Assembly: GCA_001189275.1 (NCBI GenBank)
Contig: CP012158.1
Span: forward strand, 1,054,001-1,118,000
Direction: 5' to 3'
Source: Pyrobaculum sp. WP30
GTDB lineage: Archaea; Thermoproteota; Thermoprotei; Thermoproteales; Thermoproteaceae
DNA length: 64,000 bases
This document shows positions 17,130 through 42,051 of the stretch, one piece after another. The first letter of the stretch is position 1. Every line of letters begins with the position of its first letter. The notes under the pieces were generated by a model. The model saw nothing but the letters and a program-made list of their open reading frames with translations. It was not told where the DNA came from and did not search any database. A program made the position numbers and the translations under genes.

Positions 17130-17372
17130 GATGTGTCGCGGCTTCCTTCAGCTTCCCCGCGGCTGGGTTTACTTTGAGGCCTAGGGTCTCAGCGTCGATC
17201 GGCACGACGTCCATCTCGTTGGACGCGGTATATGCGTGTAGGCCCTTCTGCCCACGCACCGTAGTGGCTTTGCCGTCATGGCCCCCTATTGTGGTGCAGT
17301 TGGAGTTCCTCGGCGGTTCTTCTCGCCACGGTTAAGGTGACGCCTATATCGACAAGCGCTTTGGCGGTGTCA
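17130..17372 (-). pseudogene. Degenerate retropepsin-like aspartyl protease gene
   Basis: Minus-strand DNA that aligns with most of the intact gene at 19574-19927: the C-terminal block ending GLKVNPAAGKLKEAAT matches GLEVDPVTGKLKEAAT, and the upstream part retains AKALVDIGVTL against AKALVDTGATL. The catalytic D-T-G is now D-I-G. Several frameshifts separate the pieces. At 17372 the homology stops exactly where the PaREP8-like gene begins, so the last eight codons of that gene are borrowed from this relict read in another frame. Confidence 0.75.
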
Positions 17373-17913
17373 AGGCTTTTTTCACCTCCTCCAGCGCGTG
17401 TTCAAGCTCCTCGCTCCACTTGATTCGTCCTTTGAGCGCCTCTACGCGTTTGATAAGCTCTTGTATTAGCTCCACCACGTCTGCGGCGGCTGACTCCCTC
17501 GTCGTGTATTTAGACAAAACTGCATCTGGATCCGGCCCGTGGTATTGGTATTCGTGGAGGTCTAGGGCGAGAGCCGTCACAAAAGTAATACCCTCGTGGC
17601 CGACATCCCTCAGCAGACGGGCAAGCTCTTTCATCTTTGTGGTGGGGACCCGCGGCACCGCCTTAGACTCCAGCCACCTCTTCTCCTCCTCCGTCTTGGC
17701 CAGAGCCTTGAGCTTCTCCAGCTCAAGTCTGAGGAGGGCGGCCAGAAGGGCCTTCCAGGCTTGGAAGGCTTTGCACGCGGCGTTTCGGGTGAGGCCCCTC
17801 TCCAGATACTCCAACGCCAGCTTCGCCTCCCCCAAAGTCTCAAGAAGCCTAGCCTCCACATACGCCGCATCGCTCGGCCTAGGCAGAGGCCTCTCCACAA
17901 GCTCAACAACCAT
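17344..17913 (-). CDS. PaREP1/PaREP8-like helical protein, copy 1
   Basis: 189 aa, start ATG 17913 with a TATA box (cttaaaag) centred 24 nt upstream. All-helical: residues 15-65 carry EARLALxYLERGLTRNAACKAFQAWKALL-type sequence, like the PaREP1/8 family (Pfam PF05942, grouped by Pfam with HEPN/KNTase_C helical bundles, as I recall). A conserved LLRDVGHEGITFVT block and YQYHGPDPD follow, then a coiled-coil C-terminus. Near-identical copies lie at 20239-20775 and 41500-42051. The last eight residues (TPPKRLSI) are not shared and derive from the adjoining protease relict. It lies 72 nt downstream of an ATPase gene. Function unknown; RNase activity as in some HEPN proteins is speculation. Confidence 0.8.
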   Translation of the reverse strand: MVVELVERPLPRPSDAAYVEARLLETLGEAKLALEYLERGLTRNAACKAFQAWKALLAALLRLELEKLKALAKTEEEKRWLESKAVPRVPTTKMKELARLLRDVGHEGITFVTALALDLHEYQYHGPDPDAVLSKYTTRESAAADVVELIQELIKRVEALKGRIKWSEELEHALEEVKKALTPPKRLSI

Positions 17914-17930
17914 GGAAGTGGCGGGGTCTT

Positions 17931-17942
17931 CTCTTAAAAGTC
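17931..17942 (-). promoter_or_regulatory. TATA box of PaREP8-like copy 1
   Basis: acttttaagag on the minus strand, centred 24 nt from ATG 17913. The same element and spacing occur before the copies at 20775 and 42051, so it is part of the duplicated unit. Confidence 0.5.
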
Positions 17943-17985
17943 TTTACGGCACAGAACCCCGCGCAGACGCCGCGGCGGCTGGATA

Positions 17986-19002
17986 TTAAGAAGACGCCGC
18001 ATCCCTCAGCGCCCTCCTCACCGCCTCTCTATGTATCGGCGTCTGCCAAGCCACGTTTTTGCCGATGCCGAGCTCTGGGTCTTTCTCGGGCGGCGGGGCG
18101 TCTATCCAGAAGTAGGGGTCTCTGTCGTACATGTTGTACACAATTAGGTTCCTCGCCTCCAGCTCTTTGACGAGCTCCTCCGGCGCGCCGCCGGCCCAAA
18201 GCACCTCCGGATCCTCCACAGCCTCCTCAAGCCACTTCCCCCACCGCAAAACGAACTCCGCCGTCAACCTCTTCTCCCGCAACACATCTCCCACGACCCT
18301 CTCCGCGGCCCAACCGGCCGTGTGGAGCCTCCCGAGCATCCTCGGGTTGCCGCCGGTCCACCTCCACGCCTCCTCAAACGGCGGCTTCGGTCCTGGCAGT
18401 TTCTCGTACAGTTGCTGGAAGCCCTCCTTCGGCATGTTCCACATGGGCCGTAGCTCGGCCCAGAGGTGTCTCCCGATTTCGCGTCTGCTTACGCCTTCGC
18501 TGGTGGCGACTAACACCACGATGTTTTCGTAGTCGTACACCGGGTGCTCTATTGTGTTTAGCAAGCCTTTCACGTATGCGGCGGCTTTGTCTAGCCCTAT
18601 TGCTTGGAAGACGTCGTCGGCGACTATGGCGATCCTTGTCTTCCGCGTCTTCAACACCTTCCGCACAAAGTCGAAGACAGCCCACGCCACGCGGCCCACA
18701 GCATCCTCAGCCACAGCCCGCTCCACAAACTCCAGAAAGGCCTTCTTGACGTCGGGAGGCGAGACCTCTGCCGCAAAAACTCTATCCACCGGATGTAGGT
18801 AGAATACGTCGTACCCCAGCTCCCTCAGCCCAGAGGCGGCCTGCCGGAGGAAGGCGGTTTTGCCGCAGCCCTCCGGGCCGAAGATCACCACGGGGAACCT
18901 GGTGCCTCTCTCCGCCCACTCCTCCACCTGCGCCATGGCGCGGTTCCTATCCACAAACTCCGTCTCGACGCCAGGCGCGATTTCGACCTTGATCCTCTTC
19001 AC
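17986..19002 (-). CDS. Archaeal AAA-type ATPase, repeat family, copy 1
   Basis: 338 aa. Walker A GPEGCGKT at residues 42-49, Walker B RIAIVADD at 123-130, a sensor-like VATSEG near 168, and a conserved C-terminal half with IGRHLWAELRPMWNM, GPKPPFEEAWRWTGGNP and a final IGKNVAWQTPIHREAVRR. The family resembles the archaeal ATPase_2 group (PF01637) of STAND-like P-loop proteins. No nuclease or membrane domain is attached. Five related genes occur in this window (also 20863, 22209, 37006 and 40207). It is followed 72 nt later by a PaREP8-like gene, an arrangement repeated at 20863/20239. The biological role is unknown. Confidence 0.85.
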   Translation of the reverse strand: MKRIKVEIAPGVETEFVDRNRAMAQVEEWAERGTRFPVVIFGPEGCGKTAFLRQAASGLRELGYDVFYLHPVDRVFAAEVSPPDVKKAFLEFVERAVAEDAVGRVAWAVFDFVRKVLKTRKTRIAIVADDVFQAIGLDKAAAYVKGLLNTIEHPVYDYENIVVLVATSEGVSRREIGRHLWAELRPMWNMPKEGFQQLYEKLPGPKPPFEEAWRWTGGNPRMLGRLHTAGWAAERVVGDVLREKRLTAEFVLRWGKWLEEAVEDPEVLWAGGAPEELVKELEARNLIVYNMYDRDPYFWIDAPPPEKDPELGIGKNVAWQTPIHREAVRRALRDAASS

Positions 19003-19149
19003 GCTTCGGTGGGCTTCAAATCAAATTTGAGCACTGGAGGTCATCTGATCGATGGCCACGATGCTCCGGCCGCCATCTTAGGGCAAACGGCAGCGGCGTC
19101 GGGCTTGCATCTGCCCCTCGCGGCGTCTTCCCGCCCTCTGCGCCGGCGG

Positions 19150-19325
19150 CTGTGGTCATATACGGCGTGTGAGCTCCTGCGCAAACTCCTGTTGGAGGGC
19201 TTCAACGTAGGTGTGCCAGTCTAGGTAGCCTTTCTGCGTATGGTCTCTAGCGCCTTTTCGCCGGCGGCGCGTCTCATGGCGTTAGTCAGCGCCTCGGCGA
19301 GGGTCTCTACGGCCTTTCGGCGGTG
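19150..19325 (-). pseudogene. 3' fragment of a PaREP2-like gene
   Basis: This stretch is nearly identical to 15531-15705, the last 55 or so codons and stop region of the PaREP2-like gene, with a one-base deletion near 19240. The 5' part is absent. Further right (19359-19411) comes DNA similar to 17060-17110, and then the intact protease gene. The order matches 15.5-17.4 kb, so this is the remains of a duplicated block. Confidence 0.72.
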
Positions 19326-19573
19326 TTGCGTCGGCGGCGCGGGGCCGTTGCGTGGCGCCGTGTTGAGCGACAGGTGGGTTCGCCTCTTCTGAGGCCGGCG
19401 AGGCCTTGTTGCGGCGCCTGACGGTTTGCGTCTTGTACGCCGGCTTGTTGGGCATCTGTGGGCGACGTTGCGTTTACCCGGGGGCTTCGCCGCTTAATGT
19501 GGCGACCGACCTGCTGTGCGTGTGTTAGATGTTGTTTTCCTGCGGTCTCCGGCGCACGCGGGCTCATCGGCGC

Positions 19574-19927
19574 TTAGAGTAGGTACGTCGCGGCTTCCTT
19601 CAGCTTCCCCGTGACTGGGTCTACTTCGAGGCCTAAGGTCTCCAGCGCCGTTGCGCCGATCAGCACAATCTCTATGTCGTCCGACACAAGTATGTGCGTG
19701 TAGGCTTTTCTGCCCATGACCTCCACGACGCCTACGCACTCGTCGAGTTCTGTAGCGCCCTTTGCAGTCATGACTCTCCTCCTGCCTATTGTGGGCAGTT
19801 GGAGCTCCTCGGCGATTCTTCTCGGGACCGCGGTCAAGGTGGCGCCCGTATCGACAAGCGCTTTGGCGGCCGCGTGCCTGCCTGTGTCGGGGTTCCTGAC
19901 CACTACCTCAACCCAGACGAGACCCAT
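19574..19927 (-). CDS. Retropepsin-like aspartyl protease domain protein
   Basis: 117 aa from ATG 19927. A TATA-like tatttatg lies about 22 nt upstream. Residues 22-30 read KALVDTGAT, the DTG catalytic motif of single-domain (dimeric) aspartic proteases, followed by a VPRRIAEEL helix and an LIGATALETLGLEVDP C-terminal block. The size is typical of clan AA retropepsin-like archaeal and bacterial proteins. There is no signal peptide, so it should be cytoplasmic. A second member is at 51540-51884 and a decayed one at 17130-17372. Substrates are unknown. Confidence 0.78.
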   Translation of the reverse strand: MGLVWVEVVVRNPDTGRHAAAKALVDTGATLTAVPRRIAEELQLPTIGRRRVMTAKGATELDECVGVVEVMGRKAYTHILVSDDIEIVLIGATALETLGLEVDPVTGKLKEAATYLL

Positions 19928-20238
19928 GAGTTAAACGGAACCTGTATTTATGTCCTTTCAGCGGATTTCTCCCTCAGCGGTTCTCCGCCTATGTGCCCCA
20001 TCGATAGCTCTTGTATTTTCTCTATGTTTCACGTTCTCGCTGAGTGATTTGACTCTTGAAGGGTCTGTCCTCTTCGTGAGCTCGGCATGGAGTCGAGGGG
20101 CCTAGGCGTGGGCCTCCCCCTGGCTTGGTCTAGCTCCGTTGCTGAGGATCTTAATCTCAGAGCGGCTCCATTTGTTGCCCGGCAAATGGAGGAGCCGCCG
20201 CATCATTAGCCGGCGCAGGTGGCGTTGTCCAAGAGACC
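19928..20238. other. Spacer with a long imperfect hairpin
   Basis: No gene seen. It contains the promoter of the protease gene at its left end and an inverted repeat at 20163-20200 described separately. The rest looks like non-coding or fully decayed DNA. Confidence 0.4.
20163..20200. repeat. Inverted repeat with a 3-nt bulge
   Basis: cggctccatttg and caaatggaggagccg face each other across an 8-nt loop: CGGCTC pairs with GAGCCG and CATTTG with CAAATG, leaving GAG bulged. It lies 40 nt beyond the stop of the PaREP8-like copy 2. It could be a terminator-like hairpin, a structured RNA or the end of a small mobile element. Confidence 0.55.
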
Positions 20239-20775
20239 TCAAGGCGTTAAGACTCTTTTCACCTCTTCCAGCGCTTTTTCCAACTCCTCGCCCCACTTGA
20301 CGCGGCTCCTCAGCGCCTCGATGCGTCTGGCGAGCTCTTGCAGTAGCTCGACTACATCCGCGGCGGCTGACTCCCTCGTCGCGTATTTAGACAGCGCCGT
20401 GTCTGGATCAGGGCCGTGGTACTGATAGTCGTGGAGGTCAAGCGCCTTATCGGTCACAAAAGTAATGCCCTCGTGGCCGACGTCTCTCAGCAGGTGAGAC
20501 AGCTCCTTCATCTTGGCGGCGGGGACCCGCGGCACGGCTTTCGACTCCAGCCACCTCTTCTCCTCCTTGGTCCTGGCCAGGGCCTTCAGCTTATCCAGCT
20601 CAAGCCGCAACAGAGCGGCCAGAAGGGCCTTCCACGCATGGAAGGCTTTACACGCGGCGTTTCTCGTAAGGCCCTCCTCAAGAAAGCGAAGCGCCAGACG
20701 GGTCTCCACGAGAGCCTCCAGAAGCCTAGCCTCTATATAGCCCTCGTCGGAGGGCTTGGGAAGCGGCTTCTCCAC
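20239..20775 (-). CDS. PaREP1/PaREP8-like helical protein, copy 2, start codon mutated
   Basis: 178 aa if started at the GTG at 20775. The sequence is close to copies 1 and 3: EARLALxFLEEGLTRNAACKAFHAW, LLRDVGHEGITFVT and YQYHGPDPD. In the other copies the start is ATG before GTT/GCT-GT-GAG codons. Here the same position (20790-20788) reads GCG. The TATA box (20808-20818) is intact and would place the mRNA 5' end at this lost ATG, so translation must use the GTG 15 nt inside or fail. It lies 87 nt downstream of the ATPase at 20863, and the intergenic DNA is nearly the same as between 17914 and 17985. Confidence 0.65.
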   Translation of the reverse strand: MEKPLPKPSDEGYIEARLLEALVETRLALRFLEEGLTRNAACKAFHAWKALLAALLRLELDKLKALARTKEEKRWLESKAVPRVPAAKMKELSHLLRDVGHEGITFVTDKALDLHDYQYHGPDPDTALSKYATRESAAADVVELLQELARRIEALRSRVKWGEELEKALEEVKRVLTP

Positions 20776-20862
20776 AAGCTCAACAACCGCGGGAACTCCT
20801 GCAGTCTTTTTTAAAAGTCTTTACGGCGTAGAACCCCGCGCGAACGCCGCGGCGGCTGGATA

Positions 20863-21879
20863 TTAAGAAGTCGCCGCCTCCATCAGCGCCCTCCTCACCG
20901 CCTCTCTGTGTATGGGGGTCTGCCAGGCGGCGTTCTTCCCGATGCCCAGCTCCGGGTCCCTCTCGGGGGGCGGCTGGTCGACCCAGAAGTAGGGGTCCCT
21001 CTCGTACATGTTGTAGATGATTAGATTCTTTTCCTCTAGTGCGTCTATCAACTCCTCAGATGCCTCGGGGCTCCAGAAGGCGTCGGGGTTCTCCACGGCT
21101 TGTTCAAGCCAGCCGCGCCACCTGGCCACGAAGGGAGACGATAGTACCTTCTCCCTTGCAACAGCTGTGACGACCTTGTCGACGTTCCAACTAGCCTCGT
21201 ACAGTCTTCGGAGCATGTCGGGGTTTCCGCCGGTCCACCTCCACACCTCTTCAAACGGCGGCTTTGGGCCCGGGATTCTCTCGTATAACTGCCGGAACCC
21301 CTCCATCGACATGTTCCACATGGGGGCGAGGTGGGCCCACCTATGCCTCCCGATCTCCCGCCGCGAGGCGCCTTCGCTGGTCGTCACGAGGACGACGATC
21401 TTCTCGTATCTGGATTCTGGATATTCGATTAGGTTTAACAGCGCTTTGACGTATGCTGCGGCCGCGTCCAGCCCTATGGCTTGGAAGACGTCGTCTGCTA
21501 TCACGGCGATTTTGCCCTGCCGCGCCTTCTGTAGCTTGCGGATGAAGTCTACGGCGGCCCACGTTATTCTGCCGAGGGCGTTTTCGCCCAAAGCCCTCTC
21601 CACAAACCGCATGAACTCGCTCTTTATGTCCGGCAGGTCGACCTCGGCCTCGAACTTCCGCTCTAGGGGGTGTAGATAGAAGACCTCGAACCCCAGCTCC
21701 CTCAGCATGGCGGAGGTTTGTAGAAGGAGGGCGGTCTTGCCGCATCCCTCCGGGCCAAATACGACGACGGGCCGCCAGGTGCTTTTCTCGGCCCACTCCT
21801 CCACCTGCTTAAGCGCCCTATCTCGATTGGTGAATTCCATCCAGAGACCTGGGGCGAATTTCAGCTCAACTTTATTCAT
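20863..21879 (-). CDS. Archaeal AAA-type ATPase, repeat family, copy 2
   Basis: 338 aa, the same length and architecture as the gene at 17986: Walker A GPEGCGKTALL near residue 42, Walker B KIAVIADDVFQAIG near 125, VTTSEGASRREIGRHRWAHL, GPKPPFEEVWRWTGGNP, and the C-terminal GIGKNAAWQTPIHREAVRR. ATG 21879 is preceded by two TATA-like runs (gatataaaa), the second centred 26 nt upstream. It forms a two-gene unit with the PaREP8-like gene at 20239. All motifs are present, so it should bind and hydrolyse ATP. Partners and role are unknown. Confidence 0.85.
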   Translation of the reverse strand: MNKVELKFAPGLWMEFTNRDRALKQVEEWAEKSTWRPVVVFGPEGCGKTALLLQTSAMLRELGFEVFYLHPLERKFEAEVDLPDIKSEFMRFVERALGENALGRITWAAVDFIRKLQKARQGKIAVIADDVFQAIGLDAAAAYVKALLNLIEYPESRYEKIVVLVTTSEGASRREIGRHRWAHLAPMWNMSMEGFRQLYERIPGPKPPFEEVWRWTGGNPDMLRRLYEASWNVDKVVTAVAREKVLSSPFVARWRGWLEQAVENPDAFWSPEASEELIDALEEKNLIIYNMYERDPYFWVDQPPPERDPELGIGKNAAWQTPIHREAVRRALMEAATS

Positions 21880-22208: not shown

Positions 22209-23219
22209 TCATGTTATCTCCTTAAGCGCCCTTCTCACCGCTTCTCTGTGTATGGGGGTCTGCCAGGCTAGGTATTTCCCGATGCCTAGCTCGGGATCCC
22301 TCTGGGGGGGCGGCTGGTCTATCCAGAGGTGCTCCTGCCTGAGGTATACGTCCGTGACCAGGTTGTGCTCGACTAGTCTGTGCATCAGCGGTAGCCTCTC
22401 CCTGATGAACAGCGTGTCTGGGTCCTCGACCGCCTCGGCTAGCCACTCCCTCTCCTCCTTGCTTAACAATCTGGCGAATTCTAGCAAGCTCTTGGCCCTC
22501 ATGATTGCCTCGACGGCTTTATCCACGTCCCAATTGAGCTGGTATAGTTGTTTAAGTATGCCGGGGTTCCCGCCTGTGAGTCTCCACGCGTCTTCAAACG
22601 GCGGTTTGGCAGGTATCTTCCTGTACAGCTCCTCAAATCCGCCCTTCGGCATGTTCCACATCGTCGTTAAGTCAGCCCATCTATGCCTCCCTATCTCCCT
22701 CTTGGACAGGCCTTCGCTTGTGGCTACGAGCACCACGGCGTTTTCGTAGCTCTGGGGCGGGTATTCTATTAGGTTTAGTAGCCCCTTGACGTAGGCCGCC
22801 GCCTGTTGTAGTCCTATTGCTTGAAACACGTCGTCGACGATCACTGCGATCTTGGCCTTCCTAGCCTTCAACACCTTGTGTACGAAGTCGATTGCTCCCC
22901 AGGCTATCCTGCCGACTGCGTTCTCGGCGAGCGCCTTTTCTACGAACTGCATAAACGCGTTTTTGATGTCTGGCATCGTTACGTCTGCGTGGTAGGCCCT
23001 ATCCAGCGGGTTTAGGTAGAAGACCTCATAGCCGAGTTCTCTAAGCACCTCGGTTGCCTGCCTGAGCAGTGCCGACTTGCCGCAACCCTCGGGGCCGTAG
23101 ATAACCATTGGGAGCGCCGTACCCCTAACCGCCAGCTCCTCTACCTGCCTAATCGCTCTGTCTCTATCCGTGAACTCGACCTCAAGCCCGGGTAGGAGCG
23201 GCAACTTAACTCTCTTCAT
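22209..23219 (-). CDS. Archaeal AAA-type ATPase, repeat family, copy 3
   Basis: 336 aa with ATG at 23219. Walker A GPEGCGKSALLRQ near residue 42, Walker B KIAVIVDDVFQAIG, VATSEGLSKREIGRHRWADL, and the C-terminal IGKYLAWQTPIHREAVRR. Its insert before the C-terminal block (LLSKEEREWLAEAVEDPDTLF) differs from copies 1 and 2. Unlike them it has no PaREP8-like gene downstream and no clear TATA box at the expected distance. Upstream DNA instead holds a degenerate ATPase 3' end. Probably functional as an ATPase, but its expression is uncertain. Confidence 0.82.
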   Translation of the reverse strand: MKRVKLPLLPGLEVEFTDRDRAIRQVEELAVRGTALPMVIYGPEGCGKSALLRQATEVLRELGYEVFYLNPLDRAYHADVTMPDIKNAFMQFVEKALAENAVGRIAWGAIDFVHKVLKARKAKIAVIVDDVFQAIGLQQAAAYVKGLLNLIEYPPQSYENAVVLVATSEGLSKREIGRHRWADLTTMWNMPKGGFEELYRKIPAKPPFEDAWRLTGGNPGILKQLYQLNWDVDKAVEAIMRAKSLLEFARLLSKEEREWLAEAVEDPDTLFIRERLPLMHRLVEHNLVTDVYLRQEHLWIDQPPPQRDPELGIGKYLAWQTPIHREAVRRALKEIT

Positions 23220-23221
23220 CC

Positions 23222-23375: not shown

Positions 23376-23397
23376 CGTCGGTTCCTGCGTATGTGTC

Positions 23398-23757: not shown

Positions 23758-23838
23758 GGCGGAAGTTTTGCTGGGGGTATATATTGGTTACGCTGACGGG
23801 GCCGGCGGATGCGCCTTCTTAAGGCCGCCGGTGTCGTC

Positions 23839-24687
23839 TTATTGCTTGTTGTCCGTCCCCAGAACCTCCTCCAGCGTGACAACTTCTCTCTTACTTTCGA
23901 TGAGCCATATCTTGAGCTCTTTTGCCTTTTGGGCGGCTGTGGGCTCTGCTAATAGCGTGTAGAACACCGGGACGAGTTTTCCGGAAATTTTGTCTGGCTG
24001 TCTGCGCAACAGCTCCTGCGCCCTCTCCAGGGCCTTCTCCACGTCGCGGCCGCCGGCTCTAACCTTCGCCTCGCCGACCGCAGTGACAGCGCCGGCGTTG
24101 CAGTAGATGTCAAACTCGTAATCCGAATCTAGACGCAACCGCTCGGCGGCGCATCTGTAGCCCCTCTGCTCCAGGAGGTACTGCACCATCTCGCGGCCGC
24201 TGTCCTCCACGCTGATGGTTATAGACTCGATCTGCTCCTTAGTGGCCATTCTGTTCTCGATACGCCTAATCTCAGCTCTTAGCTGCTCCACCGCCGTCTC
24301 GAGGTCCTGCTTGGTGGCGTATTGCTTCAAGTCTTCTTTAGTGACGAATCTCTCTTCAGCCCACTTCTTCAGTTGCTCCAAGTCTTGCTTCGTGGCGAAC
24401 TTCTCCTCGGCCCACTTCTTCAGCTGTTCTACTGCAGTCTCTAGGTCTTGTTTTGTGGCTAACTGCTTGAGGTCTTCTTTTGTCGCCACGTTGAGGGGCA
24501 CGGCGACGCTTTCGGCCACGGCTTGCGCCAGCCTCAGCTTTGCCTCTGGGTGTTTGGTGAGGAGGTCTAACAAAGCCTCGGCGATGCGGCCGTCGGACCT
24601 CAGCGCCTCTAGAAAGAGATCTCTAAAGAATATGGGCTCCCTCTCCACCAGCTCCCGCAAAGCCCGCTTGAGGATTTCAACATCCAC
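23839..24687 (-). CDS. DUF3782-like coiled-coil protein with nuclease-like domain
   Basis: 282 aa. Residues 1-65 are helical. Residues about 68-150 contain a repeated T-K-x-D-L-x2 unit (ATKEDLKQL, ATKQDLETA, VTKEDLKQY and so on), alternating with VEQLKKWAEEKF-type helices, a regular coiled coil. Residues about 165-270 form a domain with SDYEFDIYCNAGAVTAVGEAKV, an Asp/E-x-K arrangement of PD-(D/E)xK nucleases. This layout is typical of the archaeal DUF3782 family. There is no signal peptide. ATG 24687 has an AT-rich run upstream. Function not established for the family. Confidence 0.78.
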   Translation of the reverse strand: MDVEILKRALRELVEREPIFFRDLFLEALRSDGRIAEALLDLLTKHPEAKLRLAQAVAESVAVPLNVATKEDLKQLATKQDLETAVEQLKKWAEEKFATKQDLEQLKKWAEERFVTKEDLKQYATKQDLETAVEQLRAEIRRIENRMATKEQIESITISVEDSGREMVQYLLEQRGYRCAAERLRLDSDYEFDIYCNAGAVTAVGEAKVRAGGRDVEKALERAQELLRRQPDKISGKLVPVFYTLLAEPTAAQKAKELKIWLIESKREVVTLEEVLGTDNKQ

Positions 24688-27423: not shown

Positions 27424-28604
27424 AGGAGGATGCAGTCTCCCCGGCAGAGGGGCTTGGCGAGGGGGCGCTCGCCTATTAGGAGGTCGGCCTTGGGGGGTTC
27501 CTGCTTGGGCAGGAGGCCGGCGAGGTCGGCGTAGGCGGGGGCGGGCTTGGCGTCTAGGGCTTCCGCAAGTGCGACGAGGTTCTCCATGGCCTCTCTGTAG
27601 TTCCTCCTCTGGGCCTCCACACGTATGACTCCCCTCCTCGTGATGGCGAGGATCTCGGTTTTTTCTGCGCGTGTGAGGGCTGTTGCCACCGCCCCGGCGA
27701 GGGCCTCCAGGACCTTGTCCATGGCCTTGGGGGTTGTGGCGTAGAGGAGGGCGGCTATCCGCATCTCGCCGGCGGCTCTGCCTTCCAGCATCTTGACGGC
27801 GGGTTTCAAGATTTTGGCCATTTTTTTCCAGTGCAACCGCTTGAGGGGGTCGCCTGGGGTGTACTCCCGCAACCCTGTCACCTCCTCCACGTATCCGGCG
27901 ATGAGGCGGGCGCCGAGCTCCACGGCGGCGCGTACGCGGGGTATGACGTAGATGGGGGGGTGTCTGAGTCTCCTCCGGTAGGTGGCGGTCTTGGTGGGGC
28001 TGGTGTAGGTGAGGGTTATGGCTGGGGTGTAGAGCCCCGCCGTATCGAAGCGTAGCTTCATGTCGAAGTCTGCTTCGCCGTTGATGTATACGGTTCTGCC
28101 GTCGGGGAGCTGGGCCTGGGCGGGGGCGCCTGTCTTTATCTTCAGCCTGTAGGCTAGTGGCCGCCCGGCCACAGTCTCCAGCTTGCTCGGCGTCTCCAGG
28201 GCGGGTTTGTCGCGGGCGAACTTCACGTAGTACCAAATGGTCTCCGCCGCCGTGTAGGCCAGGGCGGGCGCGAGGGAGGGGCTCGACGCAGTGGCAACAG
28301 CGAAGATGAGGAGGTGGGCGTACCAGGGCAACGTGTTGTCTTTGGTCTTGGCTATGTGTAGAAGCGGGATCAGCGCCGCGGCGAACGCCGGCGAGAGGGG
28401 CGGGGGGAGGAGGGCGGCGGCGGCGTAGTGGAGGAGCAGGGCTGGGGTGTGGAGGCGGGCTAGGGGCTTGAGCTCTAGGGCGAGGAGGGCTAGGGCGGCT
28501 GTGGCTGGGATTGGGCTGGGCCAGGCGGCGGCTAGGTAGAGGAGGGGTAGCGCCCTGCGGGCGGCGTCATATATAGGTGGGGGGCTCCACCTGGGCGAGG
28601 GCAT
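27420..28604 (-). CDS. DUF58 family protein
   Basis: 394 aa. Several N-terminal hydrophobic segments (residues about 15-110) anchor it. A beta-rich part follows, and then the DUF58 signature near residue 250: GLREYTPGDPLKRLHWKKMAK, and a von Willebrand-A-like C-terminal half (EILAITRRG). DUF58 proteins accompany MoxR ATPases and are thought to help assemble or activate partner proteins. The ATG at 28604 overlaps the MoxR 3' end by 38 nt; no better start is seen. It is the last gene of the operon that begins at 32908. Confidence 0.88.
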   Translation of the reverse strand: MPSPRWSPPPIYDAARRALPLLYLAAAWPSPIPATAALALLALELKPLARLHTPALLLHYAAAALLPPPLSPAFAAALIPLLHIAKTKDNTLPWYAHLLIFAVATASSPSLAPALAYTAAETIWYYVKFARDKPALETPSKLETVAGRPLAYRLKIKTGAPAQAQLPDGRTVYINGEADFDMKLRFDTAGLYTPAITLTYTSPTKTATYRRRLRHPPIYVIPRVRAAVELGARLIAGYVEEVTGLREYTPGDPLKRLHWKKMAKILKPAVKMLEGRAAGEMRIAALLYATTPKAMDKVLEALAGAVATALTRAEKTEILAITRRGVIRVEAQRRNYREAMENLVALAEALDAKPAPAYADLAGLLPKQEPPKADLLIGERPLAKPLCRGDCILL

Positions 28605-32936: not shown

Positions 32937-32948
32937 GTTGCCTCCGCC

Positions 32949-34327: not shown

Positions 34328-35200
34328 GTGAGAGTTGTGGTTACTGGCGGCGCGGGGTTTGTCGGTAGCCACGTGGCGGCGTATCTCGCGGAGAGGGGGT
34401 TCAAAGTCGTTGCGGTAGATAATCTGGAGAGGGCGTCTGCGGTGAGGCGTCTTGAGGAGGTGGGCGTGTCGCTGGTGGTGGGCGACGTCCGTTTTGTCGA
34501 CTTGCCGCCTGCAGAGGCCGTGGTACACGCCGCCGCCTACATAAACGTGGAGGAGAGTTGGGAGAGGCCTTATGAATACATGTGGAACAACGCCGCCGCC
34601 ACCGCACGCATCGCCAAGCAGTGCGCCAAGACGAGCACCCGCCTCATCTACATCTCCTCAGCGGCTGTCTACGGCGAACCCCAACACCTCCCCATCAACG
34701 AAAACCACCCCACGAGACCTCTTTCGCCCTACGGACTCTCAAAGCTGGCGGGGGAGCAGGTAGCGCAGATGCTCGCGCCGGGGGCCGCCGTGCTCCGTCT
34801 CTTCAACGTCTACGGCCCAGGCCAGACGGGGCCCTACGCCGGCGTCGTCTCGAAATTCATCGAGAGGGCCAAGGGGAGCCTCCCCCCAGTCATCTACGGC
34901 GACGGGACGCAGACCCGCGACTTCGTACATGTGGCCGACGTGGCCCGTTTCGTCGAAGTCGTCCTCGACCGCGGCGCCGCTGGCGTCTTCAACGTGGGGA
35001 CCGGCAGGTCCGTCTCTATAAGAGAACTAGCTACCATTGTGATGCGGCTGGCTGGGCTGGGCGGCGAGCCTCTCTACGCCCCGCCGAGACCCGGCGACAT
35101 CAAACACAGTGTTGCCGACGTGACAAAGGCCAAATTGCTGGGCTGGCAACCCCAGATCCCGCTGGAGGAGGGGCTGAGGGAGCTATGGACTACTTGGTGA
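34328..35200 (+). CDS. NAD-dependent nucleotide-sugar epimerase/dehydratase
   Basis: 290 aa from the GTG at 34328, with a TATA box (gatttaaag) 23 nt upstream. Extended SDR fold: TGGAGFVGSH at residues 6-15, D-N-L after strand 2, ISSAAVYGE with the catalytic Ser near 110, and YGLSK with Tyr/Lys near 136. The C-terminal half has LRLFNVYGPGQ, TRDFVHVADVA and NVGTGRSVSI. Closest in type to UDP-glucose/galactose 4-epimerases; the exact substrate is not evident. A 5' half copy lies at 12574-12993. The last 16 nt overlap the GT2 gene. Confidence 0.92.
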   Translation: MRVVVTGGAGFVGSHVAAYLAERGFKVVAVDNLERASAVRRLEEVGVSLVVGDVRFVDLPPAEAVVHAAAYINVEESWERPYEYMWNNAAATARIAKQCAKTSTRLIYISSAAVYGEPQHLPINENHPTRPLSPYGLSKLAGEQVAQMLAPGAAVLRLFNVYGPGQTGPYAGVVSKFIERAKGSLPPVIYGDGTQTRDFVHVADVARFVEVVLDRGAAGVFNVGTGRSVSIRELATIVMRLAGLGGEPLYAPPRPGDIKHSVADVTKAKLLGWQPQIPLEEGLRELWTTW

Positions 35201-36084
35201 TCCTCCCGACGCTTAACGAGCGGGAGGGCTTGGCTAAGACTCTCGACGAGCTTTTTTCAGTGGGTGTGCCGCCTGACAAAATCTTGGTGGTTGACGGCGG
35301 CTCCACCGACGGCACCTGCGACGTGGCGCGGGAGAGGGGGGTCCGTTGCATTATGCAGGAGGGGAGGGGGAAGGCCGCCGCCGTAAAGACGGCGTTTAAA
35401 TACGCAGATGCCAACGTGTTGATCGTCATGGACGCCGACTTCACCTACCCCGCCCAGCATGTGAGAGACCTTCTGGCCCAGGACTGCGACGAGGTCATCG
35501 GCGCCAGGGTGGAGGTGGAGCCCGGCGCTCAGCGGCTTCTCTACCGCTTCGGCAACTGGGTTTTGACAAAGTGGTTTAACCTCATCTTCGGCACTGATCT
35601 GACAGACGTCTTGAGCGGGATGTATGCCGTGAGGAGGGAGGCCGTGGCCGACATGGAGTTCGCCTCGCGGGGCTTCGGCATAGAGTCTGAAATCGCGGCC
35701 CACGTGGCGTCCACAGGCGGCACCATCTGCGAGGTGCCGATTCGCTACAGGAGGAGGGTGGGCCGGAAGAAGCTCGGCCTCCGCCACGGCCTCCACATCG
35801 CGTGGGACATGGCGGCGTTGGCTCCGCGCTACAACCCGGCCTTCTTCCTCTCCTTCGCCGCCGCCCTCCTCGCCCTGCCCGGGCTCGGCATCGCCGCCTG
35901 GGTCGCCTACAAGTGGGTCTTCCTAGGCGTGAAGCACTACGTCTGGGGCATCATAGCCTTCGCCCTGGTGGCCGGAGGCGTCTCGGCCGGCGCGGTGGCT
36001 GTGCTCACCCTATACCTCAAGAGGATGGAGATAAGGATATTGCGGGCCTTGAGGCGGCAGTCGGCGGGGGCAAAGACGTCATGA
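35185..36084 (+). CDS. Polyprenyl-phosphate GT2 glycosyltransferase
   Basis: 299 aa from ATG 35185, overlapping the epimerase gene. The longer frame upstream is a shadow. GT2 motifs: VILPTLNEREGL at the N-terminus, VVDGGSTDGT near residue 35, VMDADFTYP near 82, and DLTDVLSGMYAVRREAV. GFGIESEIAAHV and EVPIRYRRRVGRKK are typical of dolichyl-phosphate glucose/mannose synthases. Two C-terminal helices. It should load a sugar onto polyprenyl phosphate on the inner face, for the flippase or a GT-C enzyme. A decayed relative is at 24716-25440. Confidence 0.9.
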   Translation: MDYLVILPTLNEREGLAKTLDELFSVGVPPDKILVVDGGSTDGTCDVARERGVRCIMQEGRGKAAAVKTAFKYADANVLIVMDADFTYPAQHVRDLLAQDCDEVIGARVEVEPGAQRLLYRFGNWVLTKWFNLIFGTDLTDVLSGMYAVRREAVADMEFASRGFGIESEIAAHVASTGGTICEVPIRYRRRVGRKKLGLRHGLHIAWDMAALAPRYNPAFFLSFAAALLALPGLGIAAWVAYKWVFLGVKHYVWGIIAFALVAGGVSAGAVAVLTLYLKRMEIRILRALRRQSAGAKTS

Positions 36085-36330
36085 CTCAGCCATAGACGAC
36101 GGGGGGCTGCGAGGAAACATGCGGAGCGGCCCGGGATAAAGAGGCGGCGCCGGAGGAAGCATCCCAAGGCTACAGACGCCTCGAGCGCTGGCAAAGTCGC
36201 CGCGGTCGGCCCGCTCCAGGTTCGGGGGCTGAACAGGGGAACGCCGAGAGGTTTTACGTCGTCTCTCTTCGTCCCAATGCCGGCGGGCGTCTGTGGGTTT
36301 AGGTTTTTAAAGATTTGGCTCTACCCATCT

Positions 36331-36804
36331 GTGCAGGTCTTAGTTACGGCGAGCATCTACCGGAGGCTTGAGGCGGAGGCCGAGAGGAGGGGCGCCGCCG
36401 TGGATGAGGTTGCTGTCGAGCTTCTGGAGGCGGCGCTGGGGGCCTCGCTTGATCCGCCAGAACGCGCCGAGTTCCACCGCAGTCTTGCGGAGAAGTTCCT
36501 GCGGGAGGCCGAGGAACTGCTGGCTAGGGGCGACTACGTCCAAGCCTCCGAGAAGGCTTGGGGCGCCGCGGCGCAGATAGTCAAGGCCGCGGCGGCTAAG
36601 GCTGGGAAGGAGCTGAGGAGCCACGGCGACCTCTGGCAGTTCGTGAGTGAGATAGCCGGGGAGGACAGAGAGCTGAGGAGACTCTGGAGCACGGCGAACT
36701 CTCTGCATCAGAACTTCTACGAGGGCTGGATGCCGCCGGAGGACGTTAGGTACGCGGTTGAAGACGTGAAGCGGTTCGTCGAGAGACTGAAGAGGATGCT
36801 CTAG
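36331..36804 (+). CDS. PaREP1 family protein
   Basis: 157 aa from the GTG at 36331, which lies 23 nt after a TATA box (tttttaaag, 36304-36312). An ATG at 36277 in frame is upstream of that promoter. Residues 1-40 form a ribbon-helix-helix-like or helical start (VTASIYRRLEAEAERRG, VAVELLEAAL). Then the PaREP1 core (Pfam PF05942): FHRSLAEKFLREAEELLARG followed by YVQASEKAWGAAAQIVKAAA and a C-terminal helix ending VKRFVERLKRML. PaREP1 proteins are multicopy in Pyrobaculum and belong to the HEPN-like helical bundles. No partner gene is adjacent. Function unknown. Confidence 0.85.
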   Translation: MQVLVTASIYRRLEAEAERRGAAVDEVAVELLEAALGASLDPPERAEFHRSLAEKFLREAEELLARGDYVQASEKAWGAAAQIVKAAAAKAGKELRSHGDLWQFVSEIAGEDRELRRLWSTANSLHQNFYEGWMPPEDVRYAVEDVKRFVERLKRML

Positions 36805-37005
36805 TGCAGGTCCGGCGATAGCGGCAGGCGGCCATAGAGGACCGCGCTCCTCAACGTCTCTTGTCCTCCGCCTGCGTGCAAGGCCACTCGGCGTCTCGAC
36901 TCGCCGAGCCACACGGAGGTTGAGCAAAATGGCATGCGGGGACGTTTCTTGGATAGGATGGCCATTGCGAGGCTAGAGGGGGCCAAGCGGTGCTGAGAAG
37001 ACGGC

Positions 37006-38013
37006 CTACGTCTCCCTCAGCGCCCTCCTCACGGCTTCTCTGTGTATGGGGGTCTGCCAAGCGGCGTTCTTCCCAATGCCTAGTTCAGGGTTTCTCTCGG
37101 GGGGCGGGGCGTCTATCCAGAAGTAGGGGTCTCTGTCGTACATGTTGTACATAATTAGGTTCCTCGCCTCCAGCTCTCTTATCAGCTCCTCCGGCGCGCC
37201 GCTTGTCCAGAGCGCATCTGGATCCTCCACAGCCTCCTCAAGCCACCTCCTCCACTGACGGGTAAATTCCGCAGACAGCTTCTTATTCTGCATTAGGTGG
37301 AGAACCACCTCCTCCACATCCCATCCAGCCTTATACAGCCTTGTCAGCATCTCTGGATTGCCGCCGGTCCACTTCCACACGTCCTCGAAGGGGGGCTTGG
37401 GACCCGGCAGTTTTTCATACAGCTGGTGGAAGCCCTCCAGCGGCATGTTCCACATAGGCGTCAACTCGGCCCATCTATGCCTCCCGATCTCTCCCCGAGT
37501 GACCCCCTCGCTGGTGGCGACCACAGCCACTATCCCCTCGTAGCTCCTCGGCGGGTATTCGATTAGGTTCAGGAGGCTCTTTACGTATATGCCGGCCTTG
37601 TCCAGCCCAACGGCTTGAAACGCCTCGTCGACGAGTATGGCCACCCTCCTCCTGCCCCATCTCTTCAGCAACTCCCTCCCTACGTCCAGCGCCAACGTGG
37701 CGAGCTTGAGCTGGGCTATGCCGAACGCCTCCGAAGCCGCCTCAGCCAACCTCCTGACGACCTCACCCGCCTCCGTATGGGCGATGAAGAACCTATGCAG
37801 AGGAACGATGTAGAACACGTCGTACCCCAGCCCCCTCAGCGCCTCGGCGGCTTGCCGGAGGAAGGCAGTCTTCCCACAGCCCTCCGGGCCGAGGATGACG
37901 ACGGGCCACCTCGTGCTTTTCTCAGCCCACTCCACCACCTACGCAAGGGCGCGATCCCTATCCACAAGCTCAACCCCTAGCCCGGGGAGGAGATTGAGAG
38001 TAATTCTCCTCAT
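37006..38013 (-). pseudogene. ATPase of the repeat family, copy 4, interrupted by TAG
   Basis: The full gene would run from ATG 38013 (MRRITLNLLPGLGVELVDRD) to 37006, 335 aa. A TAG at 37941-37939 replaces the Gln codon found at this place in the other copies (xLAQVxEWA). A TATA-like gcttaag 25 nt upstream is intact. Downstream of the stop everything is preserved: Walker A GPEGCGKTAFLRQ, Walker B RVAILVDEAFQAVG, VATSEGVTRGEIGRHRWAEL, GPKPPFEDVWKWTGGNP and IGKNAAWQTPIHREAVRR. Restart at the GTG at 37938 or 37935 would yield a protein lacking about 24 residues but with every motif. A recent nonsense mutation, or an N-terminally shortened active gene. Confidence 0.75.
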
Positions 38014-38774: not shown

Positions 38775-40133
38775 GTGGTTATATTTCTAGACAGGCAGGT
38801 GGAGCTGGCGTTGCTCCGGCGGGAGCTCAAGAGGCGGGGCTTCGGCTTGTTGGTAATATACGGCAGGAGGCGGGTGGGCAAGACCGCGCTGGTGCTGAAA
38901 GCCACCGAGGACATGAGGAGGCTTTACTACCTGGCCGTGGAGAGGGGTAACCTGCCCCGGCTCAAGAGGGCGGCGATGGCGCTGGACCCCCAGGCGCGTT
39001 ACGTGGAGGAGGACTGGGAGGCCCTCTTCGCCTTTCTGGCCCAGAGAGTAGATGTGGTGGTGATTGACGAATTCCCCAACCTAATAGCCGAAGACAAGGC
39101 GGTGCTTTCGACCCTCCAAGCCGTGGTGGACCAGATGCTCAGCGGCACTAACATGAAGCTGGTGCTGGTTGGCTCCTCCGTCTCCGTCATGACGTCGAGG
39201 GTTCTCAGCTACAAGAGCCCCCTCTACGGCCGGAAGACGCTGGCCATGCACGTGAAGCCGGTGCCTTTCCTTGAGTACCGCTGCTTCTTCCCGGAGAGGC
39301 CCGCGGAGGAGCTCGTCGAAATTCACGGCTTCGCCGGAGGCGTACCGCACTACATGCTTAAGATCGGGAAGCCCTTCTGGCAGTTCCTCGACGCGGAGCT
39401 GAGGGAAAAAACCTTCATACTGGACGAGGGCGACTTCCTCCTGCGGTACGAGTTCGAAGACGTCTCGACCTACAAGCTCATACTGGAGGCGGTGGCGGCT
39501 GGGCGCGGCACCCTCGGCGAGATAAGGGACTACGCCCGGCTGAAGGCCACCGACATCACGCCCTACTTGAGAAACCTCGCCCAGGCAGGCCTCATAGAGA
39601 AGACGAAGCCCGTCTTGGGGAGAGGCCGCTACAGATACCGCATAGCGGATCGCTTCCTCAACTTCTGGTTCCGCTTCATAAACCCAAACAGGTCGGCCAT
39701 AGAGGAGGGCCTCTACACGGCGGACGACGTGAAGAGGGAATACCCCCAGTACCTCGGCCCGGTGTTTGAAGACGTGGCCAGAGAGGTCGTAATAGAGGAG
39801 ATGAGAGCCGGCAGGCTACCCCGCACCGCGCGGCTCGGCCCCCAGTGGTGGACTAGCAAGTCGGGTCCTCAGGAGATAGACCTGCTGGCGCTGGGCCGCG
39901 GCGTTGCAGTGGCTGTAGAGGTGAAGTGGAGCGACGGGGTGGACCCCGAGGAGGTCGCCGAAAGTCTCGCGGCCAAGGTCGCCCAGCTGGGCCTGGAGAC
40001 GAAGACCATCTACGTGGTGGTGGCCAAAAGCTTTGCGAAAAAGGTCGACAAGCTCCGCGGCGACCCGCTAAAAACCTACGACCTAACATACATCGACCAG
40101 CTGATGAAAGCCAGGGCCCAAACCGCCGCCTAA
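38775..40133 (+). CDS. ATPase_2 domain protein with C-terminal DUF234 nuclease-like domain
   Basis: 452 aa from the GTG at 38775, 22 nt after a TATA box. N-terminal P-loop ATPase: FLDRQVELALLRREL, Walker A YGRRRVGKTAL near residue 32, Walker B VDVVVIDEFPN near 98, VLVGSSVSVM. A winged-helix part follows (TLGEIRDYARLKATDITPYL, with GRYRYRIADRFLNFWFRFI). The C-terminal DUF234 domain has PQEIDLLALG and VAVAVEVKWSD, a PD-(D/E)xK-like D/E-x-K core. Length and layout are standard for the archaeal ATPase_2 plus DUF234 family, whose function is not settled. It is distinct from the five shorter ATPases in the window. Confidence 0.9.
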   Translation: MVIFLDRQVELALLRRELKRRGFGLLVIYGRRRVGKTALVLKATEDMRRLYYLAVERGNLPRLKRAAMALDPQARYVEEDWEALFAFLAQRVDVVVIDEFPNLIAEDKAVLSTLQAVVDQMLSGTNMKLVLVGSSVSVMTSRVLSYKSPLYGRKTLAMHVKPVPFLEYRCFFPERPAEELVEIHGFAGGVPHYMLKIGKPFWQFLDAELREKTFILDEGDFLLRYEFEDVSTYKLILEAVAAGRGTLGEIRDYARLKATDITPYLRNLAQAGLIEKTKPVLGRGRYRYRIADRFLNFWFRFINPNRSAIEEGLYTADDVKREYPQYLGPVFEDVAREVVIEEMRAGRLPRTARLGPQWWTSKSGPQEIDLLALGRGVAVAVEVKWSDGVDPEEVAESLAAKVAQLGLETKTIYVVVAKSFAKKVDKLRGDPLKTYDLTYIDQLMKARAQTAA

Positions 40134-40206
40134 GGCGCCCCGCCAACGCCAGCGCGGCACAGAAACGCCGCCGCAGAGAGACCAAAAGAAGCCTAAGCAA
40201 CGCCAG

Positions 40207-41208
40207 CTAGACCGCGTCAAGAACCCTCTTGACGGCTTCTCTGTGTATGGGGGTTTGCCAAGCCACATTTCTGCCTATGCCGAGTTCTGGGTCTGTCTCG
40301 GGCGGCGGGGCGTCTGCCCAGAATATTTGTTGTCTTTCGTATATGTTGTAGAGGATGAGGTTTCTCTCCACCAGTTGCCTAATCAACTCCTCGGGGGCGT
40401 CTGGGCTCCACAACGCCTCGGGATCCTCGACAGCCTTCTCAAGCCAGCCCCTCCACCTCGCCACGAAATCCGGCGTCAGCCTCTTCTCTCTGATAAGCCG
40501 CGTCACCACGACGCCGCTGTCCCAGCTGGTTAAGTAAAGCCTAGAAAGCATCCCCGGGTTCCCGCCGGCAAGCCGCCAAGCCTCCTCAAACGGCGGCTTG
40601 GGGCCCGGCAGTTTCTCATACAGTTGCTGGAACCCCTCCCTTGGCATATTCCACATGGGCATTACGTCGGCCCACCTATGGCGGCCGATTTCACTTCTCG
40701 ACACGCCCTCGCTGGTGGCGGCGACGGCGATTATCCTCTCGTAGTCTCTTGGCGGGTACTCGACGAGGTTTAGCAACTTTTTGACGTATAGGCCGGCTTT
40801 TTCGATGCCTATAGCCTGGAAGGCCTCGTCGACGAGCACCGCTACTCTCTTCTTCCCACGCCTAATCAGCTCCTTGATCACTTCAATCGCCAGATACGCA
40901 AGCTTAACCTCCGCAACGCCGGAGACCTCAGACGCGGCCTCAGCAAGTCTCCTAGCCACCTCAGCCACGTCTGTATGAGCAGTGAAATCCACATGAGAAA
41001 CATCGACATAGACCACGTCGTAGCCAAACCCCCTAAGCACCTCGGCGGCCTGCCTCAAAAAAGCAGACTTGCCGCAACCCTCCGGGCCGAAGATAACCAC
41101 GGGAAACAAAGCCCCCCTCTCCGCCCACGTCGCAACCTGGCCAAGCCCCACCTCTCTATCCACGAACTCCACGTCCAGGTTAGCAAACTTCACAGCAACT
41201 CTCCTCAC
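40207..41208 (-). CDS. Archaeal AAA-type ATPase, repeat family, copy 5
   Basis: 333 aa from ATG 41208, 25 nt after a TATA-like tttaataat. Walker A GPEGCGKSAFLRQ near residue 42, Walker B RVAVLVDEAFQAIG, ATSEGVSRSEIGRHRWADV, GPKPPFEEAWRLAGGNP, and IGRNVAWQTPIHREAVKR. In the segment before Walker B (HTDVAEVARRLAEAASEVSG) it matches copy 4 and differs from copies 1-3, so there are two subfamilies. A PaREP8-like gene lies 292 nt upstream on the same strand, the reverse order of the 17.3-21.9 kb units. Role unknown. Confidence 0.85.
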   Translation of the reverse strand: MRRVAVKFANLDVEFVDREVGLGQVATWAERGALFPVVIFGPEGCGKSAFLRQAAEVLRGFGYDVVYVDVSHVDFTAHTDVAEVARRLAEAASEVSGVAEVKLAYLAIEVIKELIRRGKKRVAVLVDEAFQAIGIEKAGLYVKKLLNLVEYPPRDYERIIAVAATSEGVSRSEIGRHRWADVMPMWNMPREGFQQLYEKLPGPKPPFEEAWRLAGGNPGMLSRLYLTSWDSGVVVTRLIREKRLTPDFVARWRGWLEKAVEDPEALWSPDAPEELIRQLVERNLILYNIYERQQIFWADAPPPETDPELGIGRNVAWQTPIHREAVKRVLDAV

Positions 41209-41499
41209 AAAAAACCCAGACTACCAACTTTAATAATTTCCCCAAATCTGCCGACTCCTAGACCCATCGACACCGCCAAGTATCACGCCAGCACCACGCC
41301 CAGCCCCGCCGAACCTGCCCCGGGCCTCGCCCACTAGAAGCTCCAGCTAACCAACAACCAGAATCATATATATCATTTTTCTCCTCACATCTCGGTGGAT
41401 GCTCTTGTAATTATGCTTTGTACAGGTCATGGCTAGGTTTCAGAAACGCGCGTAAAGTAGCCAATAACAGCGGTTCAAACGACGCCGCCGGTCTAGAAG

Positions 41500-42051
41500 C
41501 TAACGTGTTAAAGCCCTCCTCACCTCTTCTAGCGCTTTTTCTAGCTCGTCGCCCCACTTGATGCGTTTTTTAAGCGTCTCAACGCGCCTGGCGAGTTCTT
41601 GTATCAGCTCTACCACGTCTGCGGCGGCGGACTCCCTCGTCGTGTATTTAGACAGCGCCATGTCTGGATCAGGGCCGTGATACTGGTAGTCGTGGAGGTC
41701 AAGCGCCTTATCGGTCACAAAAGTAATGCCCTCGTGGCCGACGTCTCTTAGCAGGCGAGACAGCTCTTTCATCTTGGTCGTCGGGACCCGAGGCACGGCC
41801 CTCGACTCAAGCCACCTCCTCTCCTCCTCCGTCTTGGCCAGGGCCTTCAGCTTCTCTAGCTCAAGCCGGAGGAGGGCGGCCAAAAGGGCCTTCCAGGCCT
41901 GGAAGGCTTTACACGCGGCGTTTCTCGTAAGGCCCCTCTCAAGATACTTCAACGCCAGCCGGGCCTCGCCCAGAGCCTCAAGAAGCCGGGCCTCGATATA
42001 GCCCTCGTCAGAGGGCTTGGGAAGGGGCTTCTCCACAAGCTCGACAGCCAT
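41500..42051 (-). CDS. PaREP1/PaREP8-like helical protein, copy 3
   Basis: 183 aa from ATG 42051, with the conserved TATA box (cttaaaag, about 42071-42078) 24 nt upstream. Nearly identical to copies 1 and 2: EARLLEALGEARLALKYLERG, LTRNAACKAFQAWKALL, LLRDVGHEGITFVTDKALDL, YQYHGPDPD and EVRRALTR at the end. Unlike copy 1 it has no foreign tail, and unlike copy 2 its ATG is intact, so this is the best reference copy. The DNA upstream also repeats the ggaagtggtgggg stretch found before copy 1. Confidence 0.82.
   Translation of the reverse strand: MAVELVEKPLPKPSDEGYIEARLLEALGEARLALKYLERGLTRNAACKAFQAWKALLAALLRLELEKLKALAKTEEERRWLESRAVPRVPTTKMKELSRLLRDVGHEGITFVTDKALDLHDYQYHGPDPDMALSKYTTRESAAADVVELIQELARRVETLKKRIKWGDELEKALEEVRRALTR

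What the first reader, a model, noticed from the sequence alone, without database searches (positions are those of the whole stretch)
17344..42051. Repeated ATPase plus PaREP8-like pairs
Five P-loop ATPase genes (two subfamilies) and three near-identical PaREP8-like helical proteins occur in 25 kb. Two pairs have the same order, and even the 70-90 bp between the genes is copied. A third pair is in reverse order. An ATPase accompanied by a small HEPN-like helical protein, with fast decay of copies, is what one sees in conflict or toxin-type systems, but no toxin motif (R-x4-6-H) is clearly conserved; only R-D-V-G-H is.
Basis: partly seen in the sequence, partly recalled or inferred. Interest (0 to 1): 0.6.

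Follow-up and report, generated by a model that had tools for sequence, protein, structure and literature searches.

The report
STAND-like ATPases beside HEPN-fold PaREP8 proteins
In this heat-loving archaeon, members of a switch-like ATPase family repeatedly sit beside small proteins of the HEPN family, best known for toxin and antiviral RNA-cutting enzymes, which makes the ATPase the best lead so far to what these very common but unexplained archaeal proteins work with.

Summary
The 25 kb contain five ATPase genes of one PF01637 subfamily (one broken by an in-frame TAG) and three PaREP8 genes (PF05942; 79-85% identical to the first copy). The PaREP8 model has a HEPN fold. The ATPase model has a STAND core (top PDB match CED-4; plant NLRs, Dark and Avs3 also listed) without sensor repeats.

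The pairing is not local. In the whole genome 10 of 12 ATPase sites lie within 0.5 kb of a PF05942 gene (rotation null 0.33, maximum 4). In other Thermoproteota 48 of 122 ATPase sites have a HEPN gene within 0.5 kb: PaREP8, PaREP1, or HepT fused to a nucleotidyltransferase; 49 of 56 such neighbours share the strand. But it is not obligate: most PaREP8 genes and about 60% of ATPase sites stand apart.

The copied intergenic DNA is largely PaREP8's own promoter. Partners do not co-duplicate, and ATPases are mosaics exchanging segments.

Best explanation: a loosely paired, reshuffling stress or conflict module in which an ATPase switch controls a HEPN partner. No function was tested. The PaREP8-HEPN link was known; I found no report of the ATPase link.

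The parts
17344..17913 (-). PaREP8 (HEPN-fold) gene of pair 1
   Evidence: PF05942 E=2e-26; AlphaFold2 pLDDT 92.9; Foldseek 2q00 and 2hsb, probability 1.0
17914..17985 (-). 72-bp gap holding PaREP8's own TATA-like promoter (AAAGACTTTTAAGAGA, about 26 nt before ATG)
   Evidence: nearly the same sequence precedes the PaREP8 gene at chromosome position 187527 (+), which is convergent with its ATPase
17986..19002 (-). STAND-like ATPase of pair 1
   Evidence: PF01637 E=1e-68; AlphaFold2 pLDDT 90.4; Foldseek top match CED-4, also NLRs, Dark, Avs3
20239..20775 (-). PaREP8 gene of pair 2; usual GTG start changed to GCG, so initiation is probably impaired
20776..20862 (-). 87-bp gap with the same PaREP8 promoter; alike to the gap of pair 1 at 54 of 60 positions
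20863..21879 (-). STAND-like ATPase of pair 2
22209..23219 (-). STAND-like ATPase, tandem with the ATPase of pair 2; other C-terminal allele
   Evidence: PF01637 E=2e-65
36277..36804 (+). PaREP1-type HEPN gene, convergent with the broken ATPase
   Evidence: PF05942 E=1e-29 and PF05168 HEPN E=7e-7
37006..38013 (-). ATPase with in-frame TAG at codon 25 (37939-37941): broken copy
40207..41208 (-). STAND-like ATPase of pair 3; shares a converted tract with the ATPase at chromosome position 1779520
   Evidence: third-position run, 0 of 300 shuffles reach it
41500..42051 (-). PaREP8 gene of pair 3, upstream of its ATPase, with the same promoter as pair 1

Best explanation
The ATPase and PaREP8 are two partly independent gene cassettes that work together when both are present: a STAND-type ATPase switch (nucleotide-binding domain plus winged-helix domain, no sensor repeats) that binds and controls a HEPN-fold partner, probably one acting on RNA, in a stress or conflict response. 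The HEPN slot is exchangeable (PaREP8, PaREP1, HepT fused to a nucleotidyltransferase). Partners are reshuffled within a genome rather than kept as strict cognate pairs, and the ATPases diversify by swapping segments. Shown here: predicted folds, adjacency, its enrichment, mosaic ATPases, separate promoter-like sequences. Inferred: physical interaction, control of the HEPN partner by ATP state, RNA as target, biological role.
For: Own genome: 10 of 12 ATPase sites within 500 bp of a PF05942 gene, rotation null mean 0.33, maximum 4 in 20,000. Other Thermoproteota: HEPN genes at 0.62 per kb within 0.5 kb of ATPase sites, 0.11 per kb at 0.5-3 kb, about 0.06 beyond; 56 of 229 immediate neighbours are HEPN genes against 47 of 687 at gene offsets 3 to 6, Fisher p=1e-11; 49 of 56 co-oriented, in both orders. 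Three HEPN families take the partner place, one a HepT-like ribonuclease family member fused to a nucleotidyltransferase (PF01934 E=1e-23). The ATPase model matches CED-4, NLRs, Dark and Avs3. Within-genome partner trees are discordant (r=-0.13) while between-species r=0.73. ATPase segments are exchanged: the copies at 1779520 and 1032501 agree at 79% of third positions in one segment and 37% in another.
Against: Not obligate: 74 of 122 ATPase sites have no HEPN gene within 0.5 kb, and 60 of 76 PaREP8 loci have no ATPase of this broad family there. DUF234 ATPases of the same superfamily also sit near HEPN genes in 5 of 30 cases, so specificity is moderate (31/71 against 5/30, p=0.012). PaREP8 lacks the R of the HEPN R-x4-6-H motif, so nuclease activity is uncertain. 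PaREP8 appears to have its own promoter, so co-transcription is not implied in the window. No interaction or activity data.
Confidence: 0.45

Rival explanations
1. Neighbourhood without function: both families are expanding, fast-decaying genes that collect in the same variable, recombination-prone islands, and their adjacency reflects shared insertion and duplication sites.
For: PaREP density is raised for kilobases around ATPases (about 0.045 per kb against roughly 0.014 genome-wide); PaREP8 moves with its own promoter; DUF234 ATPases also show some proximity; P. oguniense/P. arsenaticum differences are rich in paREP1/8 regions (PMC3558965).
Against: Density jumps about tenfold exactly at the adjacent gene rather than declining smoothly; 32 of 33 close PaREP8 neighbours share the strand; the pairing recurs across genera and orders and with different HEPN families; no inverted repeats were found in the island.
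Confidence: 0.27
2. PaREP8 is not a nuclease but an RNA- or nucleotide-binding adaptor for the ATPase, which is the active part; the HEPN fold is used only for binding.
For: The R of R-x4-6-H is missing while one His is nearly invariant; PMC3710099 notes the same for the family and proposes a receptor role for its nematode relatives.
Against: E29, R43, N44, H120 and Q123 are nearly invariant, which looks like more than a scaffold; the same ATPases also sit beside MNT-HepT fusions of a ribonuclease family.
Confidence: 0.18
3. A classical toxin-antitoxin pair with strict cognate partners (PaREP8 toxin, ATPase antitoxin), as postulated for HEPN plus ParA/Soj-like ATPase dyads.
For: Compact, often overlapping, co-oriented two-gene arrangement; precedent in PMC3710099.
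Against: Partner trees within the genome are discordant; most PaREP8 genes have no ATPase beside them; ATPases are broken while the neighbouring HEPN gene persists (L143, L144).
Confidence: 0.08

Closest known systems
PaREP1/PaREP8 family (Pfam PF05942; HEPN-T Parep1/8 of PMC3710099)
   Same: The small protein is a member; HEPN fold, conserved His, R of the motif missing, expanded in Pyrobaculum, as published.
   Different: The published operon contexts are tandem PaREPs and MNT or REase (DUF1626) genes; the ATPase partner was not among those listed.
Archaeal ATPase_2 (Pfam PF01637), STAND-like
   Same: Walker A GPEGCGK, Walker B with DD/DE, GGNP motif, NBD and winged-helix core; model resembles CED-4, NLRs and Avs3.
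   Different: No fused effector, no sensor repeats; the HEPN protein is a separate gene.
HEPN (MAE_18760) plus ParA/Soj-like ATPase dyad (PMC3710099)
   Same: HEPN gene beside an ATPase gene, with the ATPase in the place of the MNT antitoxin.
   Different: Different HEPN and ATPase families; here the pairing is facultative and the order not fixed.
MNT-HepT (type VII) toxin-antitoxin
   Same: HEPN protein in a small two-gene context; an MNT-HepT fusion is one of the alternative neighbours of this ATPase.
   Different: PaREP8 pairs have no nucleotidyltransferase and PaREP8 lacks the R-x4-6-H motif.
PDC-S27 and PDC-S01 candidate defence ATPases (PADLOC)
   Same: PF01637-type ATPases in archaeal islands; one (38775-40133) lies in this window.
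   Different: They carry a fused PD-(D/E)XK-like domain (PMC12988326); the five ATPases studied have only weak local matches.

Membership tests
PaREP1/PaREP8 (PF05942) | Match over the Pfam gathering score | tested here: met
   92.5 bits against 24.4
HEPN superfamily | HEPN helical fold | tested here: met
   AlphaFold2 pLDDT 92.9; Foldseek best 2q00 and 2hsb (HEPN), probability 1.0, TMt 0.63-0.65; E-values weak, 0.02-0.2
HEPN superfamily | R-x4-6-H catalytic motif | tested here: not met
   H120 in 31 of 32 HMM-selected relatives, but no conserved R 5-7 residues before it; R-D-V-G-H not conserved
ATPase_2 (PF01637) | Match over the Pfam gathering score | tested here: met
   221-233 bits against 33.2
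STAND NTPases | NBD plus winged-helix core with Walker A and B | tested here: met
   invariant G45 C46 G47 K48 and D129
STAND NTPases | Fused effector domain and C-terminal sensor repeats | tested here: not met
   Protein ends after the winged-helix region at 338 aa
Toxin-antitoxin module | Adjacent, co-oriented genes more often than expected | tested here: met
   49 of 56 co-oriented; Fisher p=1e-11 for adjacency
Toxin-antitoxin module | Strict, co-inherited partners | tested here: not met
   Within-genome tree correlation -0.13, permutation p=0.68; most PaREP8 loci lack an ATPase
Toxin-antitoxin module | Toxicity of one gene, neutralised by the other | not testable with these tools
   Needs expression experiments
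Transposable element | Terminal inverted repeats or transposase with the unit | tested here: not met
   No inverted repeats of 40 nt or more in 15000-45000; no transposase domain in the ORFs scanned there

The most novel reading that the evidence does not exclude
A split NLR-like system in archaea: a minimal STAND core and a HEPN effector encoded as separate, exchangeable cassettes, with a family of mosaic ATPases diversified by gene conversion (broken copies possibly serving as donors), giving a repertoire of switches that use a shared pool of HEPN effectors.
Probability: 0.13. Interest if true: 0.78.

Novelty: new variant of a known kind. Interest (0 to 1): 0.48.

Why it matters
PaREP1/8 proteins (26 matches in this genome, up to 43 in relatives) and the archaeal PF01637 ATPases are abundant families without known function. 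A recurrent link between the two, extending to MNT-HepT proteins, gives a testable partner hypothesis for both and suggests that archaea may use STAND-type switches with HEPN effectors encoded in separate genes.

Tried and rejected
R-D-V-G-H as a catalytic motif: rejected on 73 relatives and on an independent set. Copying of the pair as one unit: pairs 1 and 2 do arise from a duplication that includes flanking genes, but across the genome ATPase and PaREP8 trees disagree, and the copied gap is largely PaREP8's own promoter. Carriage by known viruses: scans of IMG/VR with the PaREP8 and ATPase profiles found no relative. Membership in catalogued defence systems: no PADLOC match for PaREP8 and only weak P-loop matches for the ATPases. 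RNA family or tRNA in the window, or CRISPR-like repeats in its first 15 kb: none. PDB sequence profiles gave only P-loop or coiled-coil matches. The first gene-conversion test, on all polymorphic sites, was discounted as sensitive to conserved regions and repeated on third positions.

Full report
1. What is there. The window lies at 1054001-1118000 of a complete 1.99-Mb genome, evidently a Pyrobaculum or close relative (one same-genus genome, G006, has the length of P. oguniense TE7). Between 17344 and 42051 there are five genes of one PF01637 subfamily and three PaREP8 genes of PF05942. Pairs 1 and 2 are ATPase then PaREP8; pair 3 is PaREP8 then ATPase. The ATPase at 37006-38013 has a TAG at codon 25. 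The ATPase at 22209-23219 is tandem with that of pair 2. A sixth PF01637 gene at 38775-40133 (+) carries DUF234 and matches PADLOC PDC-S27; it is a different subfamily. Pairs 1 and 2 belong to a duplication that also copied flanking genes (15520-17370 against 19143-19870).

2. What the proteins are. PaREP8 is PF05942; its AlphaFold2 model (pLDDT 92.9, 73 sequences) matches 2q00 and the HEPN protein 2hsb best, with probability 1.0 but weak E-values. That PaREP1/8 is a HEPN family lacking the R of R-x4-6-H but keeping the H is published (PMC3710099). In relatives chosen by profile only, E25, E29, R43, K48, Q51, H120, Q123, D128 and S134 are nearly invariant; the 73-sequence set was fetched with patterns containing R43 and H120, so its conservation there is partly by construction. 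R-D-V-G-H is not a family motif (R102 in 5 of 73). The ATPase model (pLDDT 90.4) has CED-4 as top PDB match, with plant NLRs, Dark and Avs3 in the list alongside ordinary AAA+ proteins; the highest query TM-scores among the listed matches (0.45-0.50) are for NLR, CED-4 and Dark. It ends after the winged-helix region, so it has neither fused effector nor sensor repeats.

3. Is the association real? In the own genome PF05942 has 26 matches and the ATPase subfamily 13 genes plus a fragment. Ten of 12 ATPase sites have a PF05942 gene within 500 bp; rotating the PaREP positions gives 0.33 on average and at most 4 in 20,000 trials. In the other genomes of the family, PaREP density is 0.40 per kb within 0.5 kb of an ATPase and about 0.045 per kb from 1 to 7 kb, so the effect is adjacency on top of island clustering. 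Across 398 Thermoproteota genomes the ATPase occurs in 53, in 21 genera. Reading 54 further regions from these and clustering neighbours without prior labels, the commonest neighbour families are other ATPases and PaREP8 (26 loci each), PaREP1 (12 loci) and a nucleotidyltransferase-HepT fusion (9 loci) (Pfam confirmation). Counting all HEPN families, 48 of 122 ATPase sites have one within 500 bp; 56 of 229 immediate neighbours are HEPN genes against 47 of 687 at offsets 3 to 6 (p=1e-11), and 49 of 56 are co-oriented, HEPN downstream 27 and upstream 22 times. From the PaREP8 side, 16 of 76 loci in named genomes have an ATPase within 500 bp (Pyrobaculum, Thermoproteus, Vulcanisaeta, Caldivirga, Pyrolobus, Calditenuaceae and others); ATPase is the commonest neighbour family there.

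4. Limits of the association. It is facultative. Outside the order only 7 of 25 sites have a HEPN neighbour within 500 bp, mostly HepT or MNT-HepT. A control with DUF234 ATPases of the same superfamily gives 5 of 30, against 31 of 71 for this subfamily in the same family of genomes including the own (p=0.012; without the own genome p=0.085). Gene calls were simple longest-ORF choices, HEPN detection used profiles built here, and regions were sampled from best ATPase matches, so the exact fractions are approximate.

5. How the parts evolve. In the eight own-genome pairs, ATPase and PaREP8 distances are uncorrelated (r=-0.13, p=0.68), while across species the correlation is 0.73; permuting partners within genomes makes no significant difference to it (p=0.34). 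So partners are reshuffled, or copies are homogenised separately. ATPases are mosaics: the first 65 residues of the gene at 106711 are 95% identical to those of the gene at 315912, but its central part belongs to the other allele. At third codon positions the genes at 1779520 and 1032501 agree at 79% in one segment and 37% in another, and two tracts pass a global run test on third positions (p below 0.02). PaREP8 genes carry their own TATA-like box about 26 nt before the start, nearly identical upstream of pair 1, pair 3, the convergent copy at 187527 and, more loosely, a copy not next to an ATPase. This explains most of the copied 70-90 bp. Pair 2 has lost the start codon (GTG to GCG). Broken ATPases are frequent elsewhere too.

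6. How it probably works. Inference: the ATPase is a nucleotide-controlled switch that binds a HEPN partner and holds or triggers it. The partner place can be filled by PaREP8, PaREP1 or MNT-HepT. Whether PaREP8 cuts RNA is open, because R of the motif is absent. Reshuffling of partners argues against strict toxin-antitoxin pairs. The main rival, that both families merely collect in the same islands, remains possible (0.27).

7. Against the literature. The HEPN survey lists operons of Parep1/8 with tandem PaREPs or MNT and REase genes, HEPN fused to STAND NTPases in bacteria, and a HEPN plus ParA/Soj ATPase dyad postulated as toxin-antitoxin (PMC3710099). PMC2701414 found paREP1 without MNT partners. 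A 2026 survey of archaeal immunity does not mention PaREP (PMC12988326). I found no report of the PF01637-PaREP8 link in the open library; subscription papers, including the P. aerophilum genome paper, were not readable. Hence a new variant of a known kind (HEPN with NTPase), with function undemonstrated.

Noticed in passing
38775-40133 (+): ATPase with DUF234 domain matching candidate defence family PDC-S27 (PADLOC E=5e-35), lying between two of the ATPases studied.
   Followed up: partly
19574-19927 (-), remnant near 16882-17259: Clan AA aspartic protease (TIGR03698) in the duplicated block; similar protease genes lie near PaREP8 in L135, L160, L195 and L197.
   Followed up: no
16506-17054 (-): Protein without Pfam match whose DYRVDAYVETPTEKYLLEAKL stretch looks like a PD-(D/E)XK nuclease core; lies downstream of pair 1.
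   Followed up: no
23839-24687 (-): Coiled-coil protein with a 51-bp tandem repeat and a nuclease-like C-terminus; similar coiled-coil proteins recur beside PaREP8 and the ATPases in other genomes (L189, L290).
   Followed up: partly
L261, L265, L279: AAA_15/AAA_21 (OLD-like) ATPase genes recur within two genes of the STAND-like ATPases in several genomes.
   Followed up: no
L175, L200, L205: A second, divergent PF01637 subfamily sits 98-198 bp from PaREP8 in Vulcanisaeta and Caldivirga, so the link may extend to other ATPases.
   Followed up: partly
28567-29976 and 30080-31456 (-): MoxR-type AAA ATPase followed by a DUF4129 protein, inside the same stretch.
   Followed up: no
14989-15444 and 34858-36084: Family 2 glycosyltransferase matches on either side of most of the ATPase/PaREP stretch, so it may lie in a surface-polysaccharide region.
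   Followed up: no
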